Assembly: GCA_009380005.1 (NCBI GenBank)
Contig: WHSQ01000012.1
Coordinates: 1 to 59,275 of the forward strand
Direction of reading: 5' to 3'
DNA: 59,275 nucleotides
Source of the DNA: Actinomycetota bacterium
Lineage (GTDB): Bacteria > Actinomycetota > CADDZG01 > WHSQ01
Shown here: positions 1,209-15,439 of the stretch, piece by piece
How positions within the stretch are numbered: the first letter of the stretch is position 1
Layout of the letters: every line of letters begins with the position of its first letter
Program-made: the position numbers and the translations under genes
Notes under the pieces: generated by a model
Told to the model about the DNA's origin: nothing
The model's input: only the letters and a program-made list of their open reading frames with translations
The model's database searches: none

Positions 1209-1874
1209 TTGGCTGAGATAACGATCGTCGTTGCGGACTCGCAGAAGCTCTTCTGCGCTGCCCTCGGACGCGCTCTGGACCGCGAAACCGATTTTCGACT
1301 GGTCGGGGAGGCGAGTAACGCAAGGGACGTGATCGCCACGACCGCAACGAAGAAGCCCGACGTGGTCTTGCTGGACCCCGGCCTCTCGGGTCCCGGCCTC
1401 ATGATCACGATCAGGTCGATCCTCGAACGGCATCCGGGGGCCCGAGTGGTCGTCCTTCCTCACGAGGACGACGCCGAGCTGTTGGTGAGTGCTCTCCAGG
1501 AGGGAGCGGCTGGGTACCTCCCCAAGGATCGTGGGATCTCCGAGCTGATCCGGGCCACCCGGGTGGTACACCGCGGCGAGACGCAGATCCCCCGTCACAT
1601 GATGGGTTCGCTGGTCTCGAGACTGATGCATGGGGCGCGCGACCGAGAGCGAGCCCTGCGACGGATCTTCGCGCTATCGCCGCAGGAACGGGTCGTCCTG
1701 CGAGCCCTGGCCGAGGGTCGTCCAAGCGCCGAGATCGCCCGGAAGCTCGTGCTGAGCCCGAACACCGTGAGGACGCATATCCAGAACATCCTCACGAAGC
1801 TGGGGGTCCATTCCCGCCTCGAAGCGGTCGCCTTCGTGACCATGAACGACCTGCTCGAGGACCTGCCCGCCTGA
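1209..1874 (+). CDS. NarL/FixJ-family response regulator with altered receiver
   Basis: A 221-residue paralogue of the preceding gene with a LuxR-type DNA-binding end (LSPQERVVLRALAEG ... SPNTVRTHIQNILTKLGVHSRLEA). The receiver keeps D10, the phosphoacceptor D56 (VVLLDPGLSG) and K106 (YLPKD). One member of the N-terminal acidic pair is Ala (VVADSQ) and the usual Thr/Ser switch position is Pro (VVVLPHEDD). Phosphorylation or its read-out may therefore be atypical. TTG start. It follows the first regulator by 52 bp and probably shares its transcript. Targets are unknown; the pilus gene upstream is the only contextual hint. Confidence 0.82.
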   Translation: MAEITIVVADSQKLFCAALGRALDRETDFRLVGEASNARDVIATTATKKPDVVLLDPGLSGPGLMITIRSILERHPGARVVVLPHEDDAELLVSALQEGAAGYLPKDRGISELIRATRVVHRGETQIPRHMMGSLVSRLMHGARDRERALRRIFALSPQERVVLRALAEGRPSAEIARKLVLSPNTVRTHIQNILTKLGVHSRLEAVAFVTMNDLLEDLPA

Positions 1875-1923
1875 TCGCACGGCCGGCATCCGGCCTGGGA
1901 CACCCCACGTCTAGGATGGCTGC

Positions 1924-3660
1924 GTGGCCTACGTCTCCCTCTACCGCAAGTACCGCTCCCAGGATTTCGAGGAGATCCTCGGTCAGGAGCACGTGTCCCG
2001 AACGCTCGCCAATGCCATCGACGACGGCCGGGTCCATCACGCCTACCTCTTCACCGGCCCCCGGGGGACGGGGAAGACGAGCACCGCCCGCATCCTGGCC
2101 AAGGCGCTCAACTGCGAGAAGGGCCCCACGTCCAAGCCGTGCGGGAAATGCAACTCCTGTGTTGCGATCGCCGAGGGCTCCTCGCTCGACGTGATCGAGC
2201 TCGATGCGGCCTCGCACTCCAGCGTCGATTCGACCCGCGAGATCCTGGCCGGCGTCCCCCTCGCGACGGCGGGCAGCAACAAGAAGGTGTACGTCATCGA
2301 CGAGGTCCACATGCTGACGCCTCAGTCGTTCAACGCCTTGCTCAAGACGCTCGAGGAACCGCCCCCGCATGTCGTATTCGTCCTGGCGACGACCGAGGCT
2401 CACAAGGTTCTTCCCACCATCGTGTCGCGGACGCAGCGCTTCGACTTCCGGCGCATCCCCGCAGACGTATTGCAGGATCACCTCGCCAAGATCGCCAAGC
2501 AAGAGAACATCGACGTCGCCCACGAAGCACTCGGGATCGTCGCGCGACATTCCGACGGCAGCGCCCGCGATGCCCTATCGGTCCTCGATCAGTTGTCCTC
2601 GATGGGTGGTCACATCGCCGAGGAGGATGTCGAGCGACTGCTGGGAGGTCGAACGGAGGATGCGTTCGCCGAGCTCTTCGATGCGATCTCGTCGCACGAT
2701 CTGAACGGCGTCTTCCGGGTCATCGAATCCCTCGTAGCTCGGGGCGCGGACATGAGGCAGACGGCGCTCGGCGTTCTGGAACATGCGCGCTCCCTGTTGC
2801 TGGTCAAGACCGCCCCCGAGGCCGAATCGCTGATCGACGCGTCTCCCGAGGACCGCCTCGAGCTCGTGGCGGCAGCCGGGAACGTCGGTGGGACGGCTCT
2901 GGTCAGGACGATGGACCTGGTCGCGCACGCCCTGACCGAGATGCGCAACGCGCCGGCCCACCGCCTCCTGCTCGAGATCGCGCTGATCCGGGCGACGTCG
3001 CCGGAGACGGATGCCAGCGCGTCGGGCTTGCTCGGTCGCATAGAACGCCTCGAGCGCCGGATAGGTATCGCAGGGGCCGTGGAGGACACCCCGGCGCCGT
3101 CGGTTCCGGCCCAGGCCGAGGCTCCCGCTCCGGCGCGGCCCTCGAAGGCGGTGCCCAAGCCGGCGCGCGGCAAGCCGGCGGCGAAGCCCGAGGTCGCGGA
3201 GCGTCCGGCGGCGGCGGAACCGAGCCCACCACGCGCCCCGGCCGAGTCGTCGCACGTGGGCTTGGGTCACATCAAGGATGCGTGGCCGGCCACCCTCAAG
3301 GAGGTCTCGAAGGCGAGCCGCCGTGTCGGCGCGTACCTGACGCCGTCCCGGCCCGTTGGATTCGAGGGTGACGTCCTGGCCGTCGAGGTCCAGTCCGCTT
3401 TCCACAGAGACGCGATGACGCAGCCCGCGAACCGAGATGCGCTCGCGAACGCCGTCTTCGCCAGCCTCGGGATCAAGCCGGAGATCGCTTTCGAAGCACG
3501 AGGCGAGGGCTCGGGAAGCTCTCCGTCCGGGACGGACCCGTCCCCGGCTAACCTCGTCGAAGGGGCGCCGGACGAGACACAGACCGTGGATCACGATCCG
3601 ATCGAGCTCGTGAAGAAGGGGCTGGGCGCAGAAATCGTCGAGGAGAGAGAAGACGGATGA
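1924..3660 (+). CDS. dnaX: DNA polymerase III subunit gamma/tau (clamp loader ATPase)
   Basis: Clamp-loader ATPase of the replicative polymerase, 578 residues. Visible features in order: an N-terminal LYRKYRSQDFEEILGQ signature, Walker A GPRGTGKT at 45-52, a zinc site with C64, C73, C76 and C79, Walker B VIDEVHML, and a sensor region (LATTEAHKVLPTIVSR). A Pro/Ala/Lys-rich linker of about 70 residues follows, then a C-terminal tau-like domain. GTG start at 1924, only 50 bp after the regulator gene. The stop overlaps the next start in ATGA, so dnaX, ybaB and recR form one operon, the conserved bacterial order. No A-rich slippery site was noticed. Confidence 0.97.
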   Translation: MAYVSLYRKYRSQDFEEILGQEHVSRTLANAIDDGRVHHAYLFTGPRGTGKTSTARILAKALNCEKGPTSKPCGKCNSCVAIAEGSSLDVIELDAASHSSVDSTREILAGVPLATAGSNKKVYVIDEVHMLTPQSFNALLKTLEEPPPHVVFVLATTEAHKVLPTIVSRTQRFDFRRIPADVLQDHLAKIAKQENIDVAHEALGIVARHSDGSARDALSVLDQLSSMGGHIAEEDVERLLGGRTEDAFAELFDAISSHDLNGVFRVIESLVARGADMRQTALGVLEHARSLLLVKTAPEAESLIDASPEDRLELVAAAGNVGGTALVRTMDLVAHALTEMRNAPAHRLLLEIALIRATSPETDASASGLLGRIERLERRIGIAGAVEDTPAPSVPAQAEAPAPARPSKAVPKPARGKPAAKPEVAERPAAAEPSPPRAPAESSHVGLGHIKDAWPATLKEVSKASRRVGAYLTPSRPVGFEGDVLAVEVQSAFHRDAMTQPANRDALANAVFASLGIKPEIAFEARGEGSGSSPSGTDPSPANLVEGAPDETQTVDHDPIELVKKGLGAEIVEEREDG

Positions 3661-3989
3661 GCAAAGACCTTCAGCGCATGATGAAGGAAGCCCAGAAGAT
3701 GGCCGCGCACATGCAGAAGGCGCAAGAAGAGCTCGCCGACCAGGAGGTCGAGGGCAGCGCGGGCGGGGGCGCGGTCAAGGCGCTCGTGACGGGGGACCAG
3801 CGGGTCGTCTCCATCACCATCGATCCCGGGTTCTTCGACGGTGAGCCCGACGCCGACGACGTCGAGATGCTGGGCGACACCGTTACCGCAGCGGTCAACG
3901 ACGCGCTGGACAAGGCGCGCGACGCGCAAGCCGAAGCACTCGGCCCCCTCGCGGGTGGTGCCGGGGGCCTGGGCCTGCCCGGCATGTAG
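3657..3989 (+). CDS. ybaB: YbaB/EbfC-family nucleoid-associated protein
   Basis: Small DNA-binding protein of 110 residues, usual for the family. It starts with a helical [19 protein letters not shown] segment, then a beta-rich core with [13 protein letters not shown], and ends in a Gly/Leu-rich tail ([11 protein letters not shown]). The family forms dimers that bind DNA and is nearly always encoded between dnaX and recR, as here. The start ATG overlaps the dnaX stop by 4 bp, implying translational coupling. Confidence 0.93.
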
Positions 3990-4000
3990 CCGGAGCACAC

Positions 4001-4612
4001 TTGTACGCCGAACCCATCCAGCGCCTGATCGATGAGCTGGCGCGCCTTCCGGGCATCGGCCCCAAGAGCGCCCAGCGCGTCGCCTTTCACCTCTTGAAGC
4101 TGTCTGAGGATGACGCCGGTCGGCTCGCCGACGCGATCGTCGACGTGAAGGCCCGCGTCCGCCTCTGCGACGTTTGTTTCAACGTTTCGGACCAGGAGCT
4201 CTGTGAGTACTGCCGCGACGACCGCCGGGACCGGACGATGATCTGCGTGGTGCAGGAGCCTCCCGACATCGTGGCACTCGAGCGCACCCGCGAGTACGAC
4301 GGGCTGTACCACGTCCTGCAGGGGCACATCTCGCCGATCGAAGGCATCGGCCCCGAGGACCTGCGCATCGCCGAGCTGCTCGAGCGACTCAAGGCTCCTC
4401 CGGGCTCCCCCGAGGCCATCCAGGAGGTCATCGTGGCCACGAACCCCAACATAGAGGGAGAGGCCACGGCCATGTATCTGGGGCGTCTGATCGGCCCCCT
4501 GGGGGTGAAGGTCACCCGCCTGGCGAGTGGCCTGCCGGTGGGGGGCGACCTGGAGTATGCGGACGAGGTGACGCTGGGGAGGGCCCTGTCCGGCCGACGG
4601 CGAATACAATGA
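4001..4612 (+). CDS. recR: recombination mediator RecR
   Basis: RecR acts with RecF/RecO to load RecA at gaps. The 203-residue protein has an N-terminal helix-hairpin-helix ([20 protein letters not shown]), a four-cysteine zinc finger ([16 protein letters not shown]) and a Toprim domain ([16 protein letters not shown] ... [16 protein letters not shown]). The start is TTG at 4001 with GGAG five bases upstream, 11 bp after the ybaB stop. Length and domain order are normal for the family. Confidence 0.96.
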
Positions 4613-4660
4613 GTGGTCCCGCGGCGACACAGGGTTCAGAGATGTGGAAAAACCAGGTAG

Positions 4661-4687
4661 AAGGTCTTCCCCGATCTGGGCCTTTTT
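4661..4687 (+). terminator. candidate rho-independent terminator after recR
   Basis: AAGGTC (4661-4666) can pair with GGCCTT (4679-4684) around a 12-base loop, and the 3' arm runs into a five-T tract (4683-4687). It lies about 50 bp after the recR stop and before the HD-GYP gene, so it could end the dnaX-ybaB-recR transcript. The stem is short with one G-T pair, so this is tentative. Confidence 0.45.
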
Positions 4688-4729
4688 GGGACACTGATGT
4701 CCGATTGAGGTACTAGGGAGAACCCTCCG

Positions 4730-6151
4730 ATGCGCCAGCGCATGCCCTACACGAGCGTGAAGCCCTTCCTTCCGCACGCCCTCGCCGCGACGCTGGTGGT
4801 CTACGGCGTCCCGATGATCGTGACCCTGGGCCTCCTCGGGGGCGGTTCGGCCGCCCCTCCTCTGCCGGTGGCCCTGGCCGCCGGCCTGATCTTGTCCCTC
4901 GCCGCCGGCGGGATCGGCTCCTGGGCTTGGTCCCGGCGGGTCGAGTCACGCGAGATCAGCTTCGGCGAGCTGATCCTCTGGAGCTGGTTCCGCAGGAGCC
5001 AGGCCGAGGACCGCATCGAGCGGGATGCAAAGGCTCTCGCGCTGGATCCACTGGGGGTCCCCACGGCTCCGCCCGCGGGCGAGCCGCGCGACCAGGGGGC
5101 AACGCTCAGGGACCTCTCGCTCGCGCTCGAGGTGAAGGACACGTACACGCACGGCCACTCCCGCCGGGTGGAGCGTCATGTGAAGCGCACGGGTGAAGGC
5201 CTTGGACTGACCGAATCGGATCTCGACGAACTTGCATTGGCTGCAGCTCTCCACGACGTCGGCAAGATCCGCGTTCCAGACCGAGTGCTCCGCAAACCCG
5301 GTGACCTGACGATCGAAGAGCGCGTTGCCGTGGAGGAGCACGCTCTCGTCGGGGCCGCGATGGTGGCTCCGATCGGTGACGAAGGTCTTATCCAGGCGGT
5401 CCGTCACCACCACGAACGCTGGGATGGACGTGGCTATCCCCAAGGTCTAGCGGGCGGGGACATCCCCTTGCATGCCCGGATCATCGCGGTGTGCGACGCG
5501 TACGACGCGATGACCTCCACGCGGCCTTACCGTCCGAGCCTCGGACACGGGCATGCGATCGAGGTACTGCGCGAGGAGACGGGAAGTCAGTTCGATCCCG
5601 ACGTGGTCGAGGCTTTCATCTCAACGCTACCTACGCGGATACCGGTCGCGGCGATGGCGCTGTTCGCGCTGCCGCTTCGCCTGTTGCGCGAGCTCGCGGT
5701 GCCGGCGCGCCGGGTCGGGCTACAGAGCCTTGCCCCCGCAGCGGGCGCGGTCGGAGCTGCAGCCGTGATGGGTGCCGCGGTCTTCTCGCCGATCCCCGCC
5801 CCGGCACCGGCGATCGCCGCCGAGGCCACGCAGGTCGAAGAAGGCAACCCGGAGCTCGGCATACAGGTACCCGACCAGGTGCTCGGCGAGAAGGCGGAAA
5901 GGACGCAACGCAAACCCGCCGCCGAACCCACCCCCGCGCCTGCGGTGGAGACGGCCACCGAAGAAGAGGCACCCGTCGAGGTGGCCGAAGCTCAGCCCGA
6001 GCCGCGCCCGGAGCCGAAGCCGAAACCGGTGACCGAGCCCGAACCCACACCCGAACCCGAGCCGGCGGTCGTGGACTGCCGTCCGGGACCGGCCCAAGGT
6101 AAGGGGAAGGGTCCTCCCGACTGCCCGCGCGGCCGGGGGAAGAAGGGCTGA
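4730..6151 (+). CDS. membrane HD-GYP domain protein with Pro/Glu-rich tail
   Basis: 473 residues. Two N-terminal membrane segments (about 15-38 and 45-66) precede an HD-GYP domain. That domain shows H139 or H141 in TYTHGH, the metal-binding H175-D176 (ALHDVGKI), HHHERWDGRGYPQG around 226-239 with the GYP at 235-237, and DAYDAMTSTRPYRPS. The family contains cyclic-di-GMP phosphodiesterases. After the domain come a hydrophobic segment around 330-350 and a long low-complexity Pro/Glu/Lys tail ending in a basic Gly/Lys stretch. ATG at 4730 with GGGAGAA seven bases upstream. The extracytoplasmic-looking repetitive tail is unusual for this family. Catalytic activity is inferred from the intact motifs. 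Confidence 0.88.
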   Translation: MRQRMPYTSVKPFLPHALAATLVVYGVPMIVTLGLLGGGSAAPPLPVALAAGLILSLAAGGIGSWAWSRRVESREISFGELILWSWFRRSQAEDRIERDAKALALDPLGVPTAPPAGEPRDQGATLRDLSLALEVKDTYTHGHSRRVERHVKRTGEGLGLTESDLDELALAAALHDVGKIRVPDRVLRKPGDLTIEERVAVEEHALVGAAMVAPIGDEGLIQAVRHHHERWDGRGYPQGLAGGDIPLHARIIAVCDAYDAMTSTRPYRPSLGHGHAIEVLREETGSQFDPDVVEAFISTLPTRIPVAAMALFALPLRLLRELAVPARRVGLQSLAPAAGAVGAAAVMGAAVFSPIPAPAPAIAAEATQVEEGNPELGIQVPDQVLGEKAERTQRKPAAEPTPAPAVETATEEEAPVEVAEAQPEPRPEPKPKPVTEPEPTPEPEPAVVDCRPGPAQGKGKGPPDCPRGRGKKG

Positions 6152-6213
6152 CTTCGGCGTCCAGTCCGGCGCATAGCTGGGGCGTTCGCTCCCGGTTCGA
6201 TTAGCGTGAGCCC

Positions 6214-7518
6214 ATGGCATTGCTGGTCCAGAAGTATGGCGGCACCTCCGTAGGGAGCGCCGAGCGCATCCAGGCGGTGGCCCGTCGCGTGGTCGCGGCG
6301 GCCGACCGTGGCCAGAAGGTCTGCGTGGTCGTCTCCGCGATGAGCCATTCCACCGATGAGCTCGTCGACCTCGCCGCCCAGATCTCTTCCGTTCCCCACC
6401 CGCGGGAGATGGACATGCTATTGACGTCGGGCGAGCGGATATCCATGGCCTTGCTCTCGATGGCGATCATGGAGCTCGGTCGAGAGGCGATCTCGATGAC
6501 CGGATCCCAGGCGGGCATCGTCACCGACACCTCCCACGGCAGGGCGAGGATCGTCGAGGTGCGGGCGAGGCGCGTGCTCGAAGCGCTCGACGAGGGCAAG
6601 ATCGTGATCGTCGCCGGGTTCCAAGGCGTCTCGACCGAATACAACATCACCACGCTTGGGCGAGGAGGTTCCGACATGACGGCGGTCGCGCTGGCGGCCG
6701 AGCTGGATGCCGACGTCTGCGAGATCTTCACCGACGTCGACGGTGTGTTCACGGCCGATCCGCGCATCGTTCCCGAGGCGCGCCAGCTTCACGCGGTTTC
6801 CTACGAAGAGATGCTGGAGCTGAGTGCGAGCGGCGCTCGCGTGCTGCAGTTGCGTTGCGTGGAATACGCTCGTAACCACGGCGTTCTTGTCCACGTGCGC
6901 TCCTCGTTCAACGCAGAAGAAGGCACGTGGGTCCGGGAGGAGGATGAACGGATGGAGCGAGCCATCATCTCTGGGATCGCTCACGACACGTCGGAAGCCA
7001 AGGTGACGATCGTGGGCGTACCCGATAAGCCCCACGTCGCGGCGCGCGTGTTCACGCCGTTGGCCCGCGAGGGCATAAACGTCGACATGATCGTCCAGAA
7101 CATCTCAACCGATGGCCGCACCGATATCTCGTTCACGCTTCCGAAGGACGACCTCGTTCGGGCGAAGCCGTTGCTGGACGAGGTCGCGACCGGCGTGGGG
7201 GCCAGGGAGATCCAGACCGACGACAGCATCGGGAAGGTTTCGCTCGTAGGCGCCGGGATGAAGAGCCATCCGGGCGTAGCGGCGGATATGTTCGAGGCCC
7301 TCGGAGACGCCGGGATAAACATCGAGGTGATCTCCACGTCGTCGATCCGCATCTCTTGCATCGTTCGTGCTACGGACGTGGAGCAGGCTGTGAAGGTCGT
7401 GCACAAGAAGTTCGAGCTTCCGGAGGAGGCGGTGGCGCGCGAGCAGCACCCAGCCACGGCGACCGATCAGATCAAGGCGCTCCGTCCGCCCCAGAGCGAT
7501 GGAGAGGCCGCGTCATGA
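6214..7518 (+). CDS. lysC: aspartate kinase
   Basis: First step of the aspartate pathway (Lys, Thr, Met), ATP-dependent phosphorylation of aspartate. The 434-residue protein starts with the substrate motif KYGGTSVG (7-14) and has [11 protein letters not shown] and [13 protein letters not shown] in the kinase domain. Two C-terminal ACT domains follow ([17 protein letters not shown] and [19 protein letters not shown]), as in feedback-inhibited enzymes. The stop overlaps the next gene's ATG, giving the lysC-asd operon typical of actinomycetes. The ATG lies in AGCCCATGG with little Shine-Dalgarno signal. Confidence 0.97.
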
Positions 7519-8540
7519 GGATCGCGATCGTCGGTGCGACGGGCGCGGTCGGGACCGAGATCCTGAAGATCCTCGAGCAGCGTGGCACCGAGGCCGACTT
7601 CGTCGCCGTCGCGTCGGAGCGTTCGGCCGGGCGCAGGCTCCCGTTCCGCGACGGACACCTCGAGGTGTCGGCGCTGGCCCCCGAGGTCTTCGATGGGGCT
7701 GACATCGCTCTCTTCGACGTTCCCGACGAAGTCTCGCTGGAGTGGGCCGAGACGGCCACGGCTCGGGGAGCCGTCGTGGTCGACAACTCGGCCGCCTACC
7801 GGATGCACCCTCAGGTACCCCTGGTCGTTCCGGAGATCAACCCCGAGGAGGCCGCGGACCCGCCCATGGGCATCATCGCCAGTGCGAACTGCACGACGCT
7901 CGCCATGGTCGTACCCCTCGCGGCGCTACACCGCGTGGCTGGGGTGAACCGCGTCATCGCCGCCTCGTACCAGGCGGCCTCCGGCGCGGGACAGGGCGGA
8001 ATCGACGAGCTCTGGGACCAGACGGAGCTAGCGGCCAAGCAGGGAGATCAGGTGCGCGCGGGCCTGGGCCGGGAGGTGCTCGAGGCGGGCGAGGTCTTCA
8101 CCCATCCGCTCGCTCTCAACGTCATCCCCCAGGCCGGTTCCTTCAAGGAGGACGGTTACACGAGCGAAGAGCTGAAGCTGTGTCACGAGACGCGCAAGAT
8201 CATGGGTTTGCCGGATCTGAGGGTGACGGCCACCTGCGTGCGGGTTCCCGTCATGGTGGGTCATGGCGTCGCGGTGCATGCCGAGTTCGACGAGGCGATC
8301 GACGTCGACGAAGCTCGTCGCATCCTGAGTGAAGCGCCGGGGGTGGAGCTCGTCGATGATCCCGACAACTTCTCGTTCCCCACGCCACTGCTCTCTGCCG
8401 GCAACGATCCTTGCTACGTCGGCCGCATCCGCCGGGACCACTTCGACGATCGGGCGCTCGTGATGTTCTGCGTCGCGGACAACCTGCGCAAGGGAGCGGC
8501 TCTCAACACGGTCCAGATAGCCGAGCTCCTGATCGGCTAG
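7515..8540 (+). CDS. asd: aspartate-semialdehyde dehydrogenase
   Basis: Reduces aspartyl phosphate to aspartate semialdehyde with NADPH. The 341-residue protein opens with a nucleotide-binding [13 protein letters not shown], has the catalytic cysteine C126 in IIASANCTT, and later the substrate-binding stretch [16 protein letters not shown]. The reading frame is open further upstream, but the ATG at 7515 overlapping the lysC stop is the true start because it begins exactly at the Rossmann motif. Its stop overlaps the stop of the convergent DUF763 gene in the palindrome CTAG. Confidence 0.97.
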
Positions 8541-9613
8541 TCGGTCTCAAGGTCGCCGAGTCTGGCGAGGCGACGCAGCGCTTTCTCCTTCTCGGTGCGA
8601 CCCAGTCTGGCTTCGCGCACGGCGCTCTCCACGGAACGGATCGTCGTGTCGTAGAGCTGGCGATCCACCGGGAAGGGCGTGCCGTCCTTCCCACCGTGTG
8701 CAAACGAGTAACTGACCGGATCGCGGATCGAGGCAGGTTCTCCGTAGGTGAGCTCCGCGACCATCGACAGGGCGCGCAATCCCTTGGCCCCCACGCCCGA
8801 CACGCCGAGGAGCTCGGTGAAATCCTTCGGTTGAGCCTCGTACGACTTCACCAGGATGCGGTCGAGGCGCCTGGGATCGAGATCACCGATGCGGATCCAG
8901 TGATGCCGTGGCATCGAGAGCTCGCGCATGCGCGCGATCTCGGCGGTCACCTTCGATGGGTGTTCGCGCGCCAGCTCCACCGAAACCGACCTGTTGCTTC
9001 CCCCTTCACCTGCAACGAGGTTGAGCACGCCCTGCTCCGCGACCCCCGCGACCCCGGCGTGCGGGTCCTCGTCGAACGCCCCCGAGTTCATCCAGTGGTA
9101 CCGACGGGCCATGCCGGTGCCGTCGTTCAACCCCTGTTGCACGACCGACCACGCGCCGTCCTTCGTGAGCAGGAAGCTGTGGTGATAGATCTGGTAGCCG
9201 TCCTGCACCGCGGCCGAGTCGACCTTCGCCGATAGCCTGCTGGCGCGCGCGAGGGGCTGGGGATCGAGCCCCCACCTCTCCGACGCCGATTCGATCTCGG
9301 CCGGCGTCCGACGCGACGTCTTGCCCTTCCCACCGGCGACGATGACTCCCACGTCGTCGGCGAGCCCGGTGAGGCCCTCCTTGAGAGCGCCGCAGGCCGT
9401 CGTGGTGACGCCGCTCGAATGCCAGTCGAAGCCCAGGACCGTTCCGAAGGCCTGGAACCACACGGGATCGGAGACGCGGCGAAGCAGGCCCGCCGGACCC
9501 TCGTTGTCCACGATCGCCAGGCTCATCTCCCGAGCCAGCCGGCGCATCCGGTCGAACAGCCACGCCGGGGCCCGGCCGGCGTGGAGCGGCAGATCGGCCC
9601 TTCCCGTCCTCAT
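8537..9613 (-). CDS. DUF763 family protein
   Basis: A 358-residue protein of a family best known from archaea and scattered bacteria, without an assigned reaction. Recognised from RTGRADLPLHAGRAPAWLF at the start, the DPVWFQAFGTVLGFDWHSSG block and the repeated helix-hairpin-like LLGVSGVGAKGLRALSMVAEL near the C-terminus, which resembles a DNA-binding HhH. The open frame reaches 9733, but the conserved family start is the ATG at 9613, so the upstream 40 residues are left out. It is convergent with asd (stops overlap) and divergent from the peptidase. A role in DNA metabolism is a guess from the HhH-like segment. Confidence 0.75.
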   Translation of the reverse strand: MRTGRADLPLHAGRAPAWLFDRMRRLAREMSLAIVDNEGPAGLLRRVSDPVWFQAFGTVLGFDWHSSGVTTTACGALKEGLTGLADDVGVIVAGGKGKTSRRTPAEIESASERWGLDPQPLARASRLSAKVDSAAVQDGYQIYHHSFLLTKDGAWSVVQQGLNDGTGMARRYHWMNSGAFDEDPHAGVAGVAEQGVLNLVAGEGGSNRSVSVELAREHPSKVTAEIARMRELSMPRHHWIRIGDLDPRRLDRILVKSYEAQPKDFTELLGVSGVGAKGLRALSMVAELTYGEPASIRDPVSYSFAHGGKDGTPFPVDRQLYDTTIRSVESAVREARLGRTEKEKALRRLARLGDLETD

Positions 9614-9771
9614 CGGGGCAGTATCGCGACCGCCTGAGACACGGAACCGCACCCGGTCGGGCCGGCCTGTGCGCTCTCGGCCTCGCAACTCCGCAGAGAG
9701 TACGTCTCGTGACCGGCCGGTGAGATGGGGCACAATCGCCCGAGGTTGGTGCCGGCCGAGTAGGAGGCTCA

Positions 9772-10809
9772 GTGGACGAGGAACTGTTCAGGAACCTGGT
9801 GACGACGCCGGGCATCTCGGGTCGTGAGGAGCGGATCCGGGCCGTGGTCGAGCGAGAGATCGAGCCGCTCGTGGACGAGGTACGGGTCGACCGGATGGGC
9901 AACATCATCGCCCTCCGCTCCGGATCCGGGCCGCGCGTGATGCTCTGCGCTCACATGGACGCGATCGGCTTCCTGGTGCGGCACATCGACGACGACGGGT
10001 TCCTTCGCATCTCGCGGGTCGGTGGGTTCGATCCCCGGGTCCTCGTGATGCAGCGCGTCCTGGTGCAGGGAAAAGAGGACCTGATCGGGATCATCTCGCC
10101 GATGGAGAAGCCGATCCACCTGCTGGACGAGGAAGACCGCAAGAAGAGCCCGAAGATCGAGAACCTCTTCATCGACCTGTTGCGCCCCGCGGACGAGGTC
10201 AAGGAACTCGTCTCCGTCGGCGATCCGGTGAGCCTCTACCGCGAGCCGCTGATCACGGAGAAGGTCGTCGTCGCTCCCTATCTCGACAACCGTCTGAGCT
10301 TGTACGTGTTGCTCGAAGCTCTGAAGCGGGCGACGAACACGAAGATCGAGATCCAGGCCGTCGTGAGCGTCCAGGAGGAAGTCGGGGTCCGAGGTGCCAT
10401 CACCAGCGCGTACGACGTGAACCCGGACATCGGGATCGCCCTGGACGTGACGATCGCTGCGGACGTACCGGGCGTGGATGCGTCCGATCGAGTGACGAGC
10501 ATGGGTAGAGGAACGGGACTCGGCGTCATGGATTCGATGGCCATCTCCGACCCGCGGTTGGTGAAGCATTTCCGTGACATCGCCGACGCCGAAGACATCG
10601 AGTACCAGCTCGACATCCTGCTCGGCGGCGGCACCGATGCGGCGGCGATGCAACTAGCACGTGCCGGGGTGCCGGTGATCACGATCGGCCCCCCCTGTCG
10701 TTACGTACACACGGTGAACGAGGCCGCTCACGTCGAGGACATCGAAGCCTCGGTTCGGCTCCTCGAGGAGTTCCTCGTGAACGCTCACGATCTGACCCTC
10801 GAGTGGTAG
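9772..10809 (+). CDS. M42-family metallo-aminopeptidase
   Basis: 345 residues, the usual size for M42 cytosolic aminopeptidases that form large dodecameric complexes and trim peptides. Metal and catalytic motifs are in order: CAHMDAIG (His ligand), APYLDNRLS (bridging Asp), VQEEVGVRGA (general-base and metal-binding Glu pair), GIALDVT (Asp ligand) and YVHTVNE (His ligand). GTG start at 9772 with AGGAGG four bases upstream, a strong site. Substrate preference cannot be read from sequence. It runs convergently toward the cyclase/STAND gene. Confidence 0.9.
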   Translation: MDEELFRNLVTTPGISGREERIRAVVEREIEPLVDEVRVDRMGNIIALRSGSGPRVMLCAHMDAIGFLVRHIDDDGFLRISRVGGFDPRVLVMQRVLVQGKEDLIGIISPMEKPIHLLDEEDRKKSPKIENLFIDLLRPADEVKELVSVGDPVSLYREPLITEKVVVAPYLDNRLSLYVLLEALKRATNTKIEIQAVVSVQEEVGVRGAITSAYDVNPDIGIALDVTIAADVPGVDASDRVTSMGRGTGLGVMDSMAISDPRLVKHFRDIADAEDIEYQLDILLGGGTDAAAMQLARAGVPVITIGPPCRYVHTVNEAAHVEDIEASVRLLEEFLVNAHDLTLEW

Positions 10810-10828: not shown

Positions 10829-13474
10829 CTAGCCGCGGCCCTGAGAGTGGCGTCCCAACGCATAGGCCACCGCTTGGTCGCGCGTCATCCGGGTACCCTC
10901 CCGCACCGCACCGTCGAAGGCCTCTTCACCGACGGCCCGCCGCATGCCGGCCATCCACCGCTCGACGCGCGGCCTGTCGGCGGGATGGAGCGGCATCGCC
11001 ACCTGGGTGCGTATCGCCCGCGCGGTGCCGATCAGCCGGCCGCCCCGGACCGGATCACCCTGGATCGACGAGAGGCCGGCCGCCGCCTCGAGGGCCTCGG
11101 CGAGACCCTCCCATTCCCCGAGCTCCGCGCATGCCGCGATCGCCTTCATGACCAGCTCACGGGCGCGGTCGACATTCCCGGCCTCGAGATGAGCGATGCC
11201 GAGGTTGTTCGTATTGACCGCGATCCCCCACTCGTCGTCGTTCTCCTCATCGAGCTGCATGGACTCCTCGAAGAGCGCCATCGCGCGCTCGATCTGGCCG
11301 CGGTCGAGCGCGACGAGGCCGAGGTTGCCCACCGATGACGAGGCCTGTTCGTCACCGATCTGTCTCCTGATCTCCGCGCTGCGCTCGAAGAGATCCTCGG
11401 CCGCGTCGAAGTCGACGCGCCCGCGCATCACGACCCCGAGACTGTTCAGACATGCCGCTTGGCCCGGCAGATCTCCGAGCTGGGTGTAGTCACCGAGCGC
11501 CTCGTAGAAGAGAGCGGCCGCTTCCTCCGTGTGACGCTGCTGTTCTTTCAGGACCCCGAGCAGGCGCATGGCCAAGGCCCTCGAGGGTTCCGGATCGGCC
11601 GGCACCATCGCGATCGCGCGCTCGAGCCAACCCGATCCTTCCGTCGCCATCCCGTGGGTGTACCAGTAGCGCCCGAGCAGGGCGCCGAGCCGTACGAGCG
11701 CCCAGGCGTCGTCCCGCGACCCGCCCTCGGCCCGTCCTGCGAACCACGCCAGAGCGGCCCGGAGGTTGTCGAGTTCGATCCCGACCAGCTCGGTGCGGCG
11801 ATCGGAGTTGTCCTCGCGCGCTCTGTCGAGCATGTCGAGGTAGTAAGCGGCGTGGCGTTCCCGAAGGGTCGGGAGCTCGGGATCCTTCTCGAGCAGCTCG
11901 AGCGCGTAGTCGCGGATCGTCTGCAGCATCGTGAAGCGGTGATCGCCGCCGGAGATCTCGACCCGGCGCACGAGGCTGTGGTTGACGAGCGAGGTCAGCG
12001 CGTCGATGGCGTCGGCCTCCGAACCGATGACGGCGACGATGGCTTCGAGCGTCGCGCCTCCGTCGAATACCGCGAGCGCCCGGAAGAAATCCCGCTCGCG
12101 CTCGTCGAGCAGCTCGTAGCTCCAGTCGATCGTCCCTCGCAGCGTGCGGTGACGCTCCGGTGAGTCGGTCGCGCCGCCGGTCAGGAGCTTGAGGCGGTCG
12201 CCGAGCCGATCGAGGAGCGCGTCGACCGAGAACAGCTTGAGGTGAGCCGCGGCGAGCTCGAGCGCGAGTGGCAGCCCGTCGAGAAGACCACAGATCTCGG
12301 CGACCGCGGGCGCATTGTCCTCGGTGAGCTCGAATCGGGGATCTGCGGCCGCGGCGCGACCGATGAATAGCCGGCCGGCCTCAGAGCGCGCCACCGAGGC
12401 GCGCATCGGATCCTCCGGCAGGTGCAGTGGCGATAGCGGGTACTCGTGCTCGCCGCCGATCGACAGCGCTATGCGGCTCGTGGTGAGGACCTTGAGCTCG
12501 CCGCAGGAACGCAGCAGGAAGGACACGACGGGCGCGGCCGAGACCGCGCGCTCGAAGTTGTCCAGGAACAGCAGCAAGCGCTTGCGGCCGATGTGTTCGC
12601 CGACGACCTCTTTCGCCGGGCGGTCTCCGGCCACGGGGACGTCGAGGGCCTCTGCGATAGCGGTGGCGAGAACGTCTTCGGACCGCACCTGGGTGACGTC
12701 GACGAAGAAGACGCCGTCGGCGAACGCGTCGAGAGCCTCGAGGGCGGCGTCGGCCGCGAGCCGGGTCTTACCGGTGCCCCCCGGTCCGGTGACCGTGACC
12801 AGGCGGACGGTGGGTGTGCGAAGGAGGGAACGGAGGTCGCCGATCTCCCTGCTGCGTCCGACGAGGCCCCCGACATGGTGGGGCACGTTGGTCGGCGGCT
12901 GCACCGAGCGCAGGGGAGGGAACTCTTCGGGAAGCTGCGGCACCACGAGCTGCAGGATGTGTTCGGGCTCCTCGAGGTCCTTCAGCCGGTGGGTTCCGAG
13001 GTCCTTGAACCCCACGCCCGGGGGAGATCCGAGCCGCGCGCGGGTGGCCTCGGAGATGACCACCTGGCCCCCATGGGCCGCATCGCAGATCCGCGCCGCT
13101 CGGTGGACGTCCATCCCGATGTAGTTGTCGTCGATCGGCACCGGCTCTCCGGTGTGAAGACCCATGCGGACGAGGACCGGTTCACCGTGGGGCCAGTCGT
13201 GGCCGAACAGCGCCCGCTGGGCCTCGACCGCTGCCGCCACCGCGCCGGCGGCGTCCGGGAACGCCACGAAGAATGCGTCGCCTCCGGTGCCGACCTCGTA
13301 CCCGCCGTGGCGGGCGAAGGCGTCCCGCAGCAAGTTGCGGTGAGCGGCGAGGACCTCGCCGAAGTCGTCGCCCAGGCGGTGGAGCAGCTTGGTCGAGCCC
13401 TCGATGTCGGTGAACAGCAGGGTCACGACACCCTGGGGAACCGCGGTCGTAACCGCTTCGCTGATCCGAGACAT
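10829..13474 (-). CDS. cyclase-homology / STAND ATPase / TPR signalling protein
   Basis: 881 residues. Residues about 14-180 are a class III nucleotide-cyclase homology domain (TLLFTDIEGSTKLL, then GGDAFFVAF with both metal-type Asp). The next block is an NB-ARC/STAND ATPase (Walker A TGPGGTGKTRLA, LLLFLDNFE, LTTSR and GLPLALELAAA). The C-terminal half is TPR-like repeats. The cyclase base-binding Lys is Gly in EVGTGGDAFF and the usual Asn of the VNxAAR motif is His (VHRAARI), so activity is uncertain. There is no DNA-binding domain. An alternative GTG start exists at 13519. The ATG at 13474 is preferred because a TACAGT hexamer lies six bases upstream, as in leaderless actinomycete genes. 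Confidence 0.82.
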   Translation of the reverse strand: MSRISEAVTTAVPQGVVTLLFTDIEGSTKLLHRLGDDFGEVLAAHRNLLRDAFARHGGYEVGTGGDAFFVAFPDAAGAVAAAVEAQRALFGHDWPHGEPVLVRMGLHTGEPVPIDDNYIGMDVHRAARICDAAHGGQVVISEATRARLGSPPGVGFKDLGTHRLKDLEEPEHILQLVVPQLPEEFPPLRSVQPPTNVPHHVGGLVGRSREIGDLRSLLRTPTVRLVTVTGPGGTGKTRLAADAALEALDAFADGVFFVDVTQVRSEDVLATAIAEALDVPVAGDRPAKEVVGEHIGRKRLLLFLDNFERAVSAAPVVSFLLRSCGELKVLTTSRIALSIGGEHEYPLSPLHLPEDPMRASVARSEAGRLFIGRAAAADPRFELTEDNAPAVAEICGLLDGLPLALELAAAHLKLFSVDALLDRLGDRLKLLTGGATDSPERHRTLRGTIDWSYELLDERERDFFRALAVFDGGATLEAIVAVIGSEADAIDALTSLVNHSLVRRVEISGGDHRFTMLQTIRDYALELLEKDPELPTLRERHAAYYLDMLDRAREDNSDRRTELVGIELDNLRAALAWFAGRAEGGSRDDAWALVRLGALLGRYWYTHGMATEGSGWLERAIAMVPADPEPSRALAMRLLGVLKEQQRHTEEAAALFYEALGDYTQLGDLPGQAACLNSLGVVMRGRVDFDAAEDLFERSAEIRRQIGDEQASSSVGNLGLVALDRGQIERAMALFEESMQLDEENDDEWGIAVNTNNLGIAHLEAGNVDRARELVMKAIAACAELGEWEGLAEALEAAAGLSSIQGDPVRGGRLIGTARAIRTQVAMPLHPADRPRVERWMAGMRRAVGEEAFDGAVREGTRMTRDQAVAYALGRHSQGRG

Positions 13475-13480
13475 CGAGTA

Positions 13481-13486
13481 ACTGTA
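13481..13486 (-). promoter_or_regulatory. -10 element of a leaderless promoter for the cyclase/STAND gene
   Basis: On the minus strand TACAGT is followed by six bases and then the ATG at 13474, with no Shine-Dalgarno sequence. This is the TANNNT-N6/7-start layout of leaderless transcripts, common in actinomycetes. No good -35 was seen. Confidence 0.45.
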
Positions 13487-13581
13487 GAGAACGGAGTCCG
13501 CCGCCGTAAGGGGGCTCACCTAGGACCGAGGGCCGGGCCCTCGAACGCATCATCCGTAAACGATGGCCTCGCGACATCGCA

Positions 13582-13838: not shown

Positions 13839-14165
13839 CTATCGTCGCCGTCGGCCCAACATTCTTTCGAGCGCTCGGAGCCTGTCGTCCCATTCAGCAC
13901 CCACTTTGGCTATCCATCGCGTCGCCTCATTAAGGGGTTCGGGGGTTAGTCGATAACGCACCTGCCTACCCTCGCGTTCAGCAGAAACGAGGCCGACATC
14001 CGCGAGCGCAGCAAGATGCTTCACGATCGCTTGCCGACTGATCGGCATCTGCTCGGCGATTTCCGAGGCACTTGCATCCCCGAACTCGGAGATGAAGCTC
14101 ATCACGTCGCGCCGACTCCGATCGGACAGCGCCGCGAATATCGCATCTACTCGTTCTTCTTTCAC
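13839..14165 (-). CDS. ArsR/SdpR-type winged-helix repressor
   Basis: 108-residue ArsR-family regulator: IFAALSDRSRRDVMSFI, then the recognition region ASEIAEQMPISRQAIVKHLAALADVGLVSAEREGRQVRYRLT. No cysteine metal site is visible, so it is likely of the non-metal SdpR-like type that is commonly paired with SRPBCC proteins. GTG start at 14165 overlaps the stop of the upstream SRPBCC gene, so both are co-transcribed. The two inverted repeats upstream of the operon (14609-14626 and 14654-14671) are the likely operators, which would give autoregulation and control of clpP. Confidence 0.88.
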   Translation of the reverse strand: MKEERVDAIFAALSDRSRRDVMSFISEFGDASASEIAEQMPISRQAIVKHLAALADVGLVSAEREGRQVRYRLTPEPLNEATRWIAKVGAEWDDRLRALERMLGRRRR

Positions 14166-14596
14166 CGTCTGACCCGTGCATCAAGGTGAAACAGTCCTAA
14201 TCCGCGGTCTGAGTAGCCTCCGGCATCGGGTGCCGAACGCTCCCTCGAGGAGAGGGCTGGAAGAGATTCCTGAACAACCAGCAGCGTCCCGCCCTCGCTT
14301 AGTTTCAGTGAGAACCGCACGTTCGTGCTCGGACGGCCCTCAGTCTTCCCCTCGGCATCTTGCGCGAACGGCAACCATCGCAGCACGAACAGGCGCTCGG
14401 TTTCGAACGTCTCGATGACAGCCCCGCGCTCGCTTCCATCTGGGAAGCGGAAGCGGACCCTTCCTCCCCGGCGGGGTTCCATCTCGACCTCCGCTCCGAA
14501 CCACTCGGAGACTTGATCCCCGTCGGTTAGCGCCTTCCAGACCTCGGCCGGCGAAGCGGGCAGCAGAATCTGTCGCTCGATCGGCTCAGGCGCCAT
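14162..14596 (-). CDS. SRPBCC (AHSA1-like) domain protein
   Basis: 144 residues with the AHSA1/SRPBCC pattern: IERQILLPASPAEVWKALTD at the start, SEWFGAEVEMEPRRGGRVRFRF, then VIETFETERLFVLRWLPF. The fold binds hydrophobic ligands, and some members resemble the Hsp90 activator Aha1. The frame is open far upstream, antisense to clpP, but the ATG at 14596 begins the domain. The last 30 residues (SSRERSAPDAGG ...) do not follow the usual family ending, so a late frameshift or divergence is possible. It is translationally coupled to the ArsR gene. Confidence 0.75.
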   Translation of the reverse strand: MAPEPIERQILLPASPAEVWKALTDGDQVSEWFGAEVEMEPRRGGRVRFRFPDGSERGAVIETFETERLFVLRWLPFAQDAEGKTEGRPSTNVRFSLKLSEGGTLLVVQESLPALSSRERSAPDAGGYSDRGLGLFHLDARVRR

Positions 14597-14608: not shown

Positions 14609-14626
14609 TGCAACCCACAGGTTGCA
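14609..14626. promoter_or_regulatory. operator 1: perfect inverted repeat TGCAACC-N4-GGTTGCA
   Basis: Perfect 7-bp arms (14609-14615 and 14620-14626) around CACA, in the divergent spacer between the SRPBCC-ArsR operon and clpP. Its right end supplies the TTGCAT used as -35 of the clpP promoter. Size and symmetry fit an ArsR-family dimer site. The assignment to the neighbouring ArsR is inferred from position. Confidence 0.65.
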
Positions 14627-14650
14627 TATTCTCGCAAGGCCTCCTAGAAT
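14622..14650 (+). promoter_or_regulatory. clpP promoter, TTGCAT-N17-TAGAAT
   Basis: TTGCAT at 14622-14627 and TAGAAT at 14645-14650 are spaced by exactly 17 bp and match the housekeeping sigma pattern well. Transcription would start near 14657, about 36 bp before the clpP ATG, which has GGAGG within the leader. Operator 1 overlaps the -35 and operator 2 covers the start site. Confidence 0.6.
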
Positions 14651-14653
14651 CGG

Positions 14654-14671
14654 TGCAACTAGCGGGTTGCA
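14654..14671. promoter_or_regulatory. operator 2: inverted repeat TGCAACT-N4-GGTTGCA
   Basis: Same architecture as operator 1 with one arm mismatch (T for C), centred 45 bp downstream of it. It overlaps the predicted clpP transcription start, so a bound repressor would block clpP. Two such sites in one spacer strengthen the case for a specific regulator. Confidence 0.62.
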
Positions 14672-14692
14672 GTTTACACGTGGAGGAAAGAC

Positions 14693-15346
14693 ATGCACGG
14701 CAACCTGATCCCGGTCGTCGTCGAGCAGAGCAGCCGCGGGGAGCGGTCCTTTGACATCTACTCCAAGCTGCTCAAGGAACGGATCGTCATGCTTGGGACG
14801 CCTGTAGACGATCACGTCGCGAATCTCATCGTCGCCCAGCTGTTGCACCTCGAGTCCGAGGATCCGGACAAGGACATCAATCTGTACGTGAACTCGCCTG
14901 GAGGCAGTGCGTATGCAGGACTCGCGATCTACGACACGATGCAATACGTCAAGCCCAAGGTGTCGACGATTTGTGTCGGGATGGCGATGTCGATGGCCGC
15001 CATCCTGTTGTGTGGAGGGGCAAAGGGAAAGCGCTTCGGTCTCCCGAACGCCAAGATAATGATTCACCAGGGCTCGTCGGGCTTCGAGGGCACTCCTGCA
15101 GACATCGAGATTCACGCCCAGGAGATTCTCTCTGTTCGTCGCCGAATGATTGAGATAGTGGCCGACCACACCGGGCATTCCCTAGAGAAGATCGAGAAGG
15201 ATATCGACCGGGATCGATTCATGACCTCGGCTGAGGCCAAGGAGTATGGACTGATCGACGAGGTGGTCGCGCCTCGAGGGCTCCGGCCTCTCGAGTCGTA
15301 CGTACCCTCGCTCGATGAAGATTCCGGCAACGGCCAATCGCCATAA
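14693..15346 (+). CDS. clpP: ClpP-type protease subunit (stand-alone)
   Basis: 217 residues, ClpP fold with an apparently complete catalytic triad: S100 in [13 protein letters not shown]125 in [10 protein letters not shown] and D174 in [19 protein letters not shown]. The region before Ser differs from the usual GQAASMGA. There is no second clpP, clpX or tig beside it, which is where the core gene normally sits, so this is likely an additional paralogue. GGAGGAAAG lies five bases before the ATG. It is the cargo nearest the tRNA-Pro in the islet, and its 3' end is only 20 bp from the tRNA 3' end. It is divergent from SRPBCC-ArsR across the two operators. Confidence 0.92.
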
Positions 15347-15362
15347 GGCACGAGCGATTCTC

Positions 15363-15377
15363 CAGTCGGGAAGGGGG
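15363..15377. repeat. tRNA-Pro 3'-end copy (attachment-like direct repeat)
   Basis: Copy of the 15-base repeat that lies within the intact tRNA-Pro gene plus three flanking bases. It is the partner of 13582-13596. Confidence 0.6.
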
Positions 15378-15439
15378 GACTTGAACCCCCGACCTCTGCG
15401 TCCCGAACGCAGCGCGCTGCCAAACTGCGCCACTTCCCG
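15366..15439 (-). tRNA. tRNA-Pro (anticodon CGG)
   Basis: Cloverleaf on the minus strand: acceptor CGGGAAG/CTTCCCG with discriminator A, anticodon arm CTGCG-TTCGGGA-CGCAG giving anticodon CGG, and T arm GGGGG-TTCAAGT-CCCCC. CCA is not encoded. Its 3' end is duplicated at 13582-13596, marking it as an integration site. Confidence 0.96.

What the first reader, a model, noticed from the sequence alone, without database searches (positions are those of the whole stretch)
14609..14671. Two matched inverted repeats bracket the clpP promoter and the divergent repressor operon
TGCAACC-N4-GGTTGCA and TGCAACT-N4-GGTTGCA are 45 bp apart. The first overlaps the -35 and the second the predicted start of a well-spaced promoter (TTGCAT-N17-TAGAAT) reading into clpP. 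The divergent gene pair encodes an ArsR protein. One regulator would thus tie a protease to its own level.
Basis: partly seen in the sequence, partly recalled or inferred. Interest (0 to 1): 0.62.

Follow-up and report, generated by a model that had tools for sequence, protein, structure and literature searches.

The report
ArsR operator controlling a spare clpP
Two matching DNA palindromes sit between a protease gene (an extra clpP) and a small repressor operon (SRPBCC plus ArsR); the same palindromes and gene layout recur in dozens of distantly related actinobacteria, so this is very probably a real, apparently undescribed switch in which an ArsR-family repressor controls both itself and a spare protease.

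Summary

Comparative evidence supports the reading. ArsR protein similarity alone found 34 loci where a clpP is divergent from srpbcc-arsR; all carry the palindrome between the genes and 32 carry a pair. A DNA-only search for the pair in 396 phylum genomes gave 29 genomes with exactly one pair each (reversed control 0); 27 flank srpbcc-arsR and 22 flank clpP. More distant ArsR genes lack it, and so do housekeeping clpP genes. The clpP -35/-10 around the sites recurs (23/46 against 0.9 by chance). A second -10, reading into srpbcc-arsR, abuts site 2 (26/48 against 2.2). In one relative where clpP has moved 7 kb away, it kept its own pair.

Module ClpPs are not one clade (AU p = 5e-6): clpP was recruited into this slot, or replaced there, several times.

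Best explanation: an autorepressing ArsR, without metal-site cysteines, also represses an extra clpP. Binding, the signal and the purpose are untested. No paper found describes it.

The parts
13839..14165 (-). arsR: 108-aa winged-helix ArsR/SmtB-family regulator, no cysteines; second gene of the operon
   Evidence: Pfam HTH_5 and HTH_20 over cut-off; NCBIfam HTH_metalloreg 70.3 bits against cut-off 55; SRQAIVKHL recognition region invariant or nearly so in relatives
14162..14596 (-). srpbcc: 144-aa AHSA1/SRPBCC (START-like hydrophobic cavity) protein; first gene of the operon, overlaps arsR start by 4 bp
   Evidence: Pfam AHSA1 51.8 bits against cut-off 22.1
14609..14626 (.). operator site 1, TGCAACC-N4-GGTTGCA; overlaps the clpP -35 and lies in the predicted 5' UTR of srpbcc
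   Evidence: conserved in relatives
14622..14627 (+). clpP promoter -35 (TTGCAT), half-site of operator 1
   Evidence: TTGC-N17/18-TANNNT recurs in 23 of 46 module loci, shuffled mean 0.9 and maximum 5
14645..14650 (+). clpP promoter -10 (TAGAAT), just before site 2
14654..14671 (.). operator site 2, TGCAACT-N4-GGTTGCA; contains the predicted starts of both divergent transcripts
14671..14676 (-). srpbcc-arsR promoter -10 (TAAACT on the minus strand), overlapping the clpP-side edge of site 2 by one base
   Evidence: TANNNT at this place in 26 of 48 module loci, shuffled mean 2.2 and maximum 8
14693..15346 (+). clpP: extra ClpP peptidase, 217 aa, Ser-His-Asp triad kept; about 72-78% identical to the tig-clpP-clpX copy elsewhere in the genome
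   Evidence: Pfam CLP_protease 275.5 bits; TIGR00493 clpP 308.7 against 308.6; triad; second clpP on C155 in tig-clpP-clpX

Best explanation
The two palindromes are operators for the adjacent ArsR protein, probably one dimer per palindrome. ArsR without its signal binds both. At site 1 it covers the clpP -35. At site 2 it covers the point where the clpP and srpbcc-arsR transcripts are both predicted to start. It therefore represses its own operon and an extra clpP together. When its signal arrives, ArsR leaves, and the SRPBCC protein, more ArsR and the extra ClpP are made at once; rising ArsR then shuts the system off. Shown by sequence: the sites, their conservation, their unique place in the genome, the conserved promoter elements, and that this clpP is an additional, catalytically intact copy. 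Inferred: binding by this ArsR, repression as the sign of control, and an inducing signal that is not a thiol-bound metal. A guess: a hydrophobic ligand or protein-damage cue that may involve the SRPBCC cavity.
For: (1) The 10 best ArsR homologues in relatives (45-56% over the alignment) all lie in genomes with clpP beside them (9) or 8 kb away (1), with the palindrome upstream of srpbcc; the more distant homologues L018-L036 lack any site resembling the pair. (2) In 80 named loci found by ArsR protein alone, nearly all srpbcc-arsR operons carry the palindromes, with clpP (Acidimicrobiia, Thermoleophilia, unnamed Actinomycetota) or without it (Streptomyces, Nonomuraea, Amycolatopsis and others; pair spacing 33/34 bp in 41 of 46). 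(3) A DNA-only search for the pair: 29 of 396 genomes, one pair each, control 0; 27 flank srpbcc-arsR and 22 flank clpP. (4) clpP -35/-10 in register with the sites: 23/46 against 0.9; second -10 on the other side of site 2: 26/48 against 2.2. (5) G012: clpP 7 kb from srpbcc-arsR, with PPK2, GroEL, GroES, TsaD and UDG genes between, keeps its own pair, and srpbcc-arsR keeps a palindrome. (6) 46 housekeeping and other clpP loci (120 kb) have only three 2-mismatch sites and none better. (7) Recognition region R-Q-A-x-x-K-H-L invariant, matching the nearly invariant site core GCAAC-N6-GTTGC. (8) A related arrangement, Rv2034-Rv2035 of Mycobacterium, is experimentally autorepressing through a palindrome with the same 4-bp spacer (PMC3338718).
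Against: No binding or expression data. Half of the clpP loci (mainly Thermoleophilia) have their TANNNT only 2-8 bp after the site 1 hexamer, so the exact promoter geometry is not universal. The generic promoter scan does not call either promoter in the window. Some actinomycetes keep the operator without clpP, so clpP is a frequent but not obligatory target. The sign of control (repression rather than activation) is inferred from position and family.
Confidence: 0.85

Rival explanations
1. The palindromes serve only autoregulation of srpbcc-arsR; clpP is a passive divergent neighbour.
For: Streptomyces-type loci keep the paired sites upstream of srpbcc-arsR with no clpP, so autoregulation is the common denominator.
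Against: clpP -35/-10 conserved in register with the sites; clpP keeps a pair when separated from arsR in G012; unrelated clpP lineages occupy the slot; site spacing differs from the 33/34 bp of the clpP-less type.
Confidence: 0.08
2. A different regulator (for example a ClgR-, HspR- or CtsR-type Clp regulator) binds the palindromes and controls clpP.
For: Clp genes are commonly controlled by such regulators (PMC9765437).
Against: The site follows the srpbcc-arsR operon even without clpP and is absent from housekeeping clpP; the strict pair occurs once per genome, beside arsR.
Confidence: 0.04
3. The inverted repeats are RNA hairpins (attenuator or riboswitch-like) in the two 5' UTRs rather than DNA operators.
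For: Each palindrome can form a 7-bp hairpin and site 1 lies in the predicted srpbcc leader.
Against: No Rfam match besides tRNA-Pro; the strictly kept letters are the core GCAAC/GTTGC, with no compensatory variation in the core across 92 sites, which fits protein recognition of sequence; no terminator-like site.
Confidence: 0.03

Closest known systems
Rv2034-Rv2035 ArsR operon of Mycobacterium tuberculosis (PMC3338718)
   Same: ArsR regulator in one operon with a polyketide_cyc2/SRPBCC gene; autorepression through a palindrome with a 4-bp spacer; two half-sites bind more strongly than one
   Different: Operator CCGTAAGT-N4-ACTTACGG against TGCAACY-N4-RGTTGCA; arsR first in the operon rather than second; one palindrome rather than two; targets reported are phoP and dosR, not clpP
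PopR-clpP3clpP4 (and ClgR) of Streptomyces (PMC9765437)
   Same: A dedicated regulator controls an extra clpP set held in reserve beside the housekeeping clpP
   Different: PopR/ClgR are activators degraded by ClpP1P2; here an adjacent ArsR, presumably a repressor, with a different operator and an SRPBCC partner
clpP-ADEP self-resistance gene of Streptomyces hawaiiensis (PMC12607617)
   Same: An accessory ClpP close to a housekeeping ClpP, additional to the core set
   Different: Lies by an antibiotic cluster; expressed in parallel with clpP1; no ArsR/SRPBCC control was described in the passages read
ArsR/SmtB metalloregulators (for example CmtR, Rv1994c)
   Same: Fold, autoregulatory divergent-operator logic
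   Different: No cysteines in this ArsR; far below the CmtR cut-off

Membership tests
ArsR/SmtB family | winged-helix ArsR DNA-binding domain | tested here: met
   Pfam HTH_5 30.3 against cut-off 22; NCBIfam NF033788 70.3 against 55
ArsR/SmtB family | autoregulatory palindromic operator at its own promoter | tested here: met
   sequence level only: palindromes upstream of nearly every member of the subfamily; binding not tested
Metal-sensing ArsR (CmtR, SmtB and others) | cysteine metal site and equivalog score | tested here: not met
   no Cys in the 108-aa protein; CmtR model 45.2 against cut-off 150
SdpR autorepressor family (NF033789) | curated score | tested here: not met
   59.1 against cut-off 100
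ClpP peptidase | Clp protease domain with Ser-His-Asp triad | tested here: met
   PF00574 275.5 bits; TIGR00493 308.7 against 308.6; triad
ClpP peptidase | partner AAA+ unfoldase encoded with it (usual, not obligatory) | tested here: not met
   no clpX, clpA or clpC beside it; clpX lies with the housekeeping clpP on C155
ClpP peptidase | hydrophobic pocket for docking the unfoldase | tested here: met
   window ClpP keeps V44 L48 Y62 I90 V92 F112 L114 V189, E. coli mature numbering; docking itself untested
SRPBCC/AHSA1 | AHSA1 domain | tested here: met
   PF08327 51.8 against 22.1; ligand unknown
PopR/ClgR, CtsR or HspR regulons | regulator of that family at the clpP operator | tested here: not met
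   the adjacent regulator is ArsR; operator letters track arsR

The most novel reading that the evidence does not exclude
A widespread, undescribed actinobacterial stress module: ArsR with an SRPBCC partner senses a non-metal (perhaps hydrophobic or ClpP-directed) insult and releases a spare ClpP that mixes into or replaces the housekeeping ClpP core. The slot has been refilled several times with a copy of the lineage's own clpP. In many lineages the spare's docking pocket is altered while its active site is kept, as would suit resistance to ClpP-targeting compounds or a change in Clp substrate choice.
Probability: 0.2. Interest if true: 0.82.

Novelty: new variant of a known kind. Interest (0 to 1): 0.62.

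Why it matters
It links ArsR regulators, best known as metal sensors, to the Clp protease through a recognisable 16-18-bp code that can be scanned for in any actinobacterial genome. It gives a testable role to the orphan srpbcc-arsR pairs common in actinobacteria. It also shows that an extra clpP was repeatedly placed under one fixed operator, so conditional expression of a second ClpP appears to have been favoured more than once. ClpP is an antibiotic target, so reserve copies and how they are switched on are of practical interest.

Tried and rejected
Random-repeat explanation: rejected by genome-wide and phylum-wide counts. RNA structure: no Rfam family beyond the tRNA. Mirror-image srpbcc promoter with its -35 in site 2 and -10 between the sites: rejected, 1 of 46 loci against 0.7 by chance; the -10 on the clpP side of site 2 was found instead. 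Single origin of module ClpP: rejected. ArsR tree: the clpP-linked label changes 7 times, but the supported branches force only one change, so a single old link with later loss is not excluded on that tree. Docking-pocket change in module ClpP (position 112 small or polar in 11 of 34 against 1 of 48): Fisher p = 1.7e-4, but only 4 independent supported pairs, so kept as a lead. Literature searches for ArsR with clpP, SRPBCC or the motif found no description. One family search failed on a wrong frame and was repeated.

Full report
What is there. The window (contig C33 of a 3.8-Mb actinobacterial genome in 639 contigs) carries srpbcc (14162-14596) and arsR (13839-14165) on the minus strand and clpP (14693-15346) on the plus strand. 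In the 96 bp between srpbcc and clpP lie TGCAACCCACAGGTTGCA (14609-14626) and TGCAACTAGCGGGTTGCA (14654-14671). The pattern TGCAAC-N6-GTTGCA occurs exactly twice in the genome, here; of the one-mismatch copies, the two that were checked lie inside coding sequence.

Is it more than chance? The window search gave 4 matches at up to two mismatches against 0.14 expected. The stronger test is comparative. Searching 60 relatives with the ArsR protein alone gave ten close homologues. Nine have clpP as divergent neighbour, and in the tenth (G012) clpP lies on the same contig about 8 kb off. All ten have the palindrome upstream of srpbcc, and the next, more distant ArsR homologues have neither. A scan of named genomes gave 80 loci. 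Together these make 34 non-redundant clpP loci found through the protein only; all have at least one palindrome and 32 have a pair. As a test free of any protein, the pair GCAACYNNNNRGTTGC-N12..36-GCAACYNNNNRGTTGC was sought in 396 genomes of the phylum: 29 genomes have it, exactly one pair each, with none in the reversed control. Twenty-seven of these lie beside srpbcc-arsR and 22 beside clpP. The two without srpbcc-arsR alongside are G012 and a pair at a contig end, where it stands upstream of an epimerase-like gene followed by clpP.

Who binds it? The palindrome is also present, paired at 33 or 34 bp in 41 of 46 measured loci, upstream of srpbcc-arsR operons that have no clpP, in Streptomyces, Nonomuraea, Amycolatopsis and others. 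It therefore belongs to this ArsR subfamily. Across 92 sites the core GCAAC-N6-GTTGC is almost invariant and the ArsR recognition region (T/S)RQAxxKHL hardly changes. Housekeeping and other clpP genes (46 loci, 120 kb) have no such site beyond three two-mismatch chance hits. The protein has no cysteine, so a classical thiolate metal site is excluded. It is below the cut-offs of the CmtR and SdpR models.

Does it govern clpP or only arsR? Three observations favour clpP as a real target. First, TTGC of site 1, 17 or 18 bp, then TANNNT, reading into clpP, is present in 23 of 46 loci against a shuffled mean of 0.9 and maximum of 5. Second, a TANNNT on the opposite strand touches the clpP-side edge of site 2 in 26 of 48 loci against 2.2 by chance; in the window it is TAAACT at 14676-14671. 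The two divergent transcripts are thus both predicted to begin inside site 2, and one bound dimer there would block both, while site 1 covers the clpP -35. Third, in G012 clpP is separated from srpbcc-arsR by 7 kb holding PPK2, GroEL, GroES, TsaD and a uracil-DNA glycosylase. clpP has kept the full pair there and srpbcc-arsR has kept a palindrome.

What is this clpP? It is an extra copy. The genome's other clpP sits in the ordinary tig-clpP-clpX order on C155 and is about 72-78% identical depending on the alignment. The catalytic triad is intact in all module ClpPs where it could be read. A tree of 82 ClpPs shows that module ClpPs are not one group: 9 label changes, at least 4 forced by well-supported branches; a single clade is rejected, p-AU 5e-6. 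They tend to group with the housekeeping ClpP of their own lineage; the window's copy falls with its own family's ClpP. The slot was therefore filled, or refilled, several times. On the ArsR tree the subfamily is separated from other ArsR proteins (97/93), while the link to clpP may be old with losses or gained more than once; the 108 columns cannot decide. One locus has two clpP genes in tandem behind the operator (L185). Two Chloroflexota loci have a DUF899 gene in the clpP slot.

How it most likely works. ArsR represses srpbcc-arsR and the extra clpP through the two palindromes, and a signal lifts both. The site anatomy, its conservation and the additional clpP are shown by sequence. ArsR binding, repression, and the existence and nature of the signal are inferred. 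SRPBCC/AHSA1 proteins have a hydrophobic cavity (general knowledge), so a hydrophobic ligand is a reasonable guess. The experimentally studied Rv2034-Rv2035 pair shows autorepression through a palindrome with a 4-bp spacer and is reported to be induced by palmitate (PMC3338718). What the extra ClpP is for is open. Reserve ClpPs under a dedicated regulator (PopR-clpP3clpP4, PMC9765437) and a ClpP that protects against acyldepsipeptides (PMC12607617) are the nearest functional precedents. In 11 of 34 module ClpPs, not in the window's, position 112 of the docking pocket is small or polar, against 1 of 48 others. This would suit an altered Clp partner or drug interaction, but shared ancestry leaves too few independent cases to call it proven.

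Novelty and score. ArsR autoregulation with a divergent target is a known kind of circuit. An ArsR-SRPBCC operator in command of an extra clpP, repeatedly recruited, was not found in the held literature; subscription journals are mostly missing from that library, so absence there is not proof. It is filed as a new variant of a known kind.

Noticed in passing
15365-15439 (-): tRNA-Pro (CGG) directly downstream of and opposed to clpP.
   Followed up: no
L162 (G012) 1758-10493: clpP and srpbcc-arsR separated by 7 kb with groEL, groES, ppk2, tsaD and a UDG gene between; both halves keep palindromes.
   Followed up: yes
L185 226-1430: Two clpP genes in tandem, overlapping, behind one operator pair.
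   Followed up: partly
L193 1-1567: Operator pair upstream of an epimerase-like gene with a clpP further down the same strand; contig ends just beyond the operator.
   Followed up: partly
L052 1978-2709 and L068 2760-3467: In two Chloroflexota loci a DUF899 gene occupies the divergent slot that clpP holds elsewhere, with the same palindromes.
   Followed up: partly
module ClpP set: Unfoldase-docking pocket position 112 (E. coli mature numbering) is small or polar in 11 of 34 module ClpPs against 1 of 48 others, active site kept.
   Followed up: partly
10829-13519 (-): Adjacent 896-aa protein combining a nucleotide-cyclase domain, an NB-ARC/AAA ATPase domain and TPR repeats.
   Followed up: no
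L175-L180: Family f27 (one genus of 5-6 Mb genomes) carries the paired operator with a fast-evolving srpbcc-arsR and no clpP.
   Followed up: no
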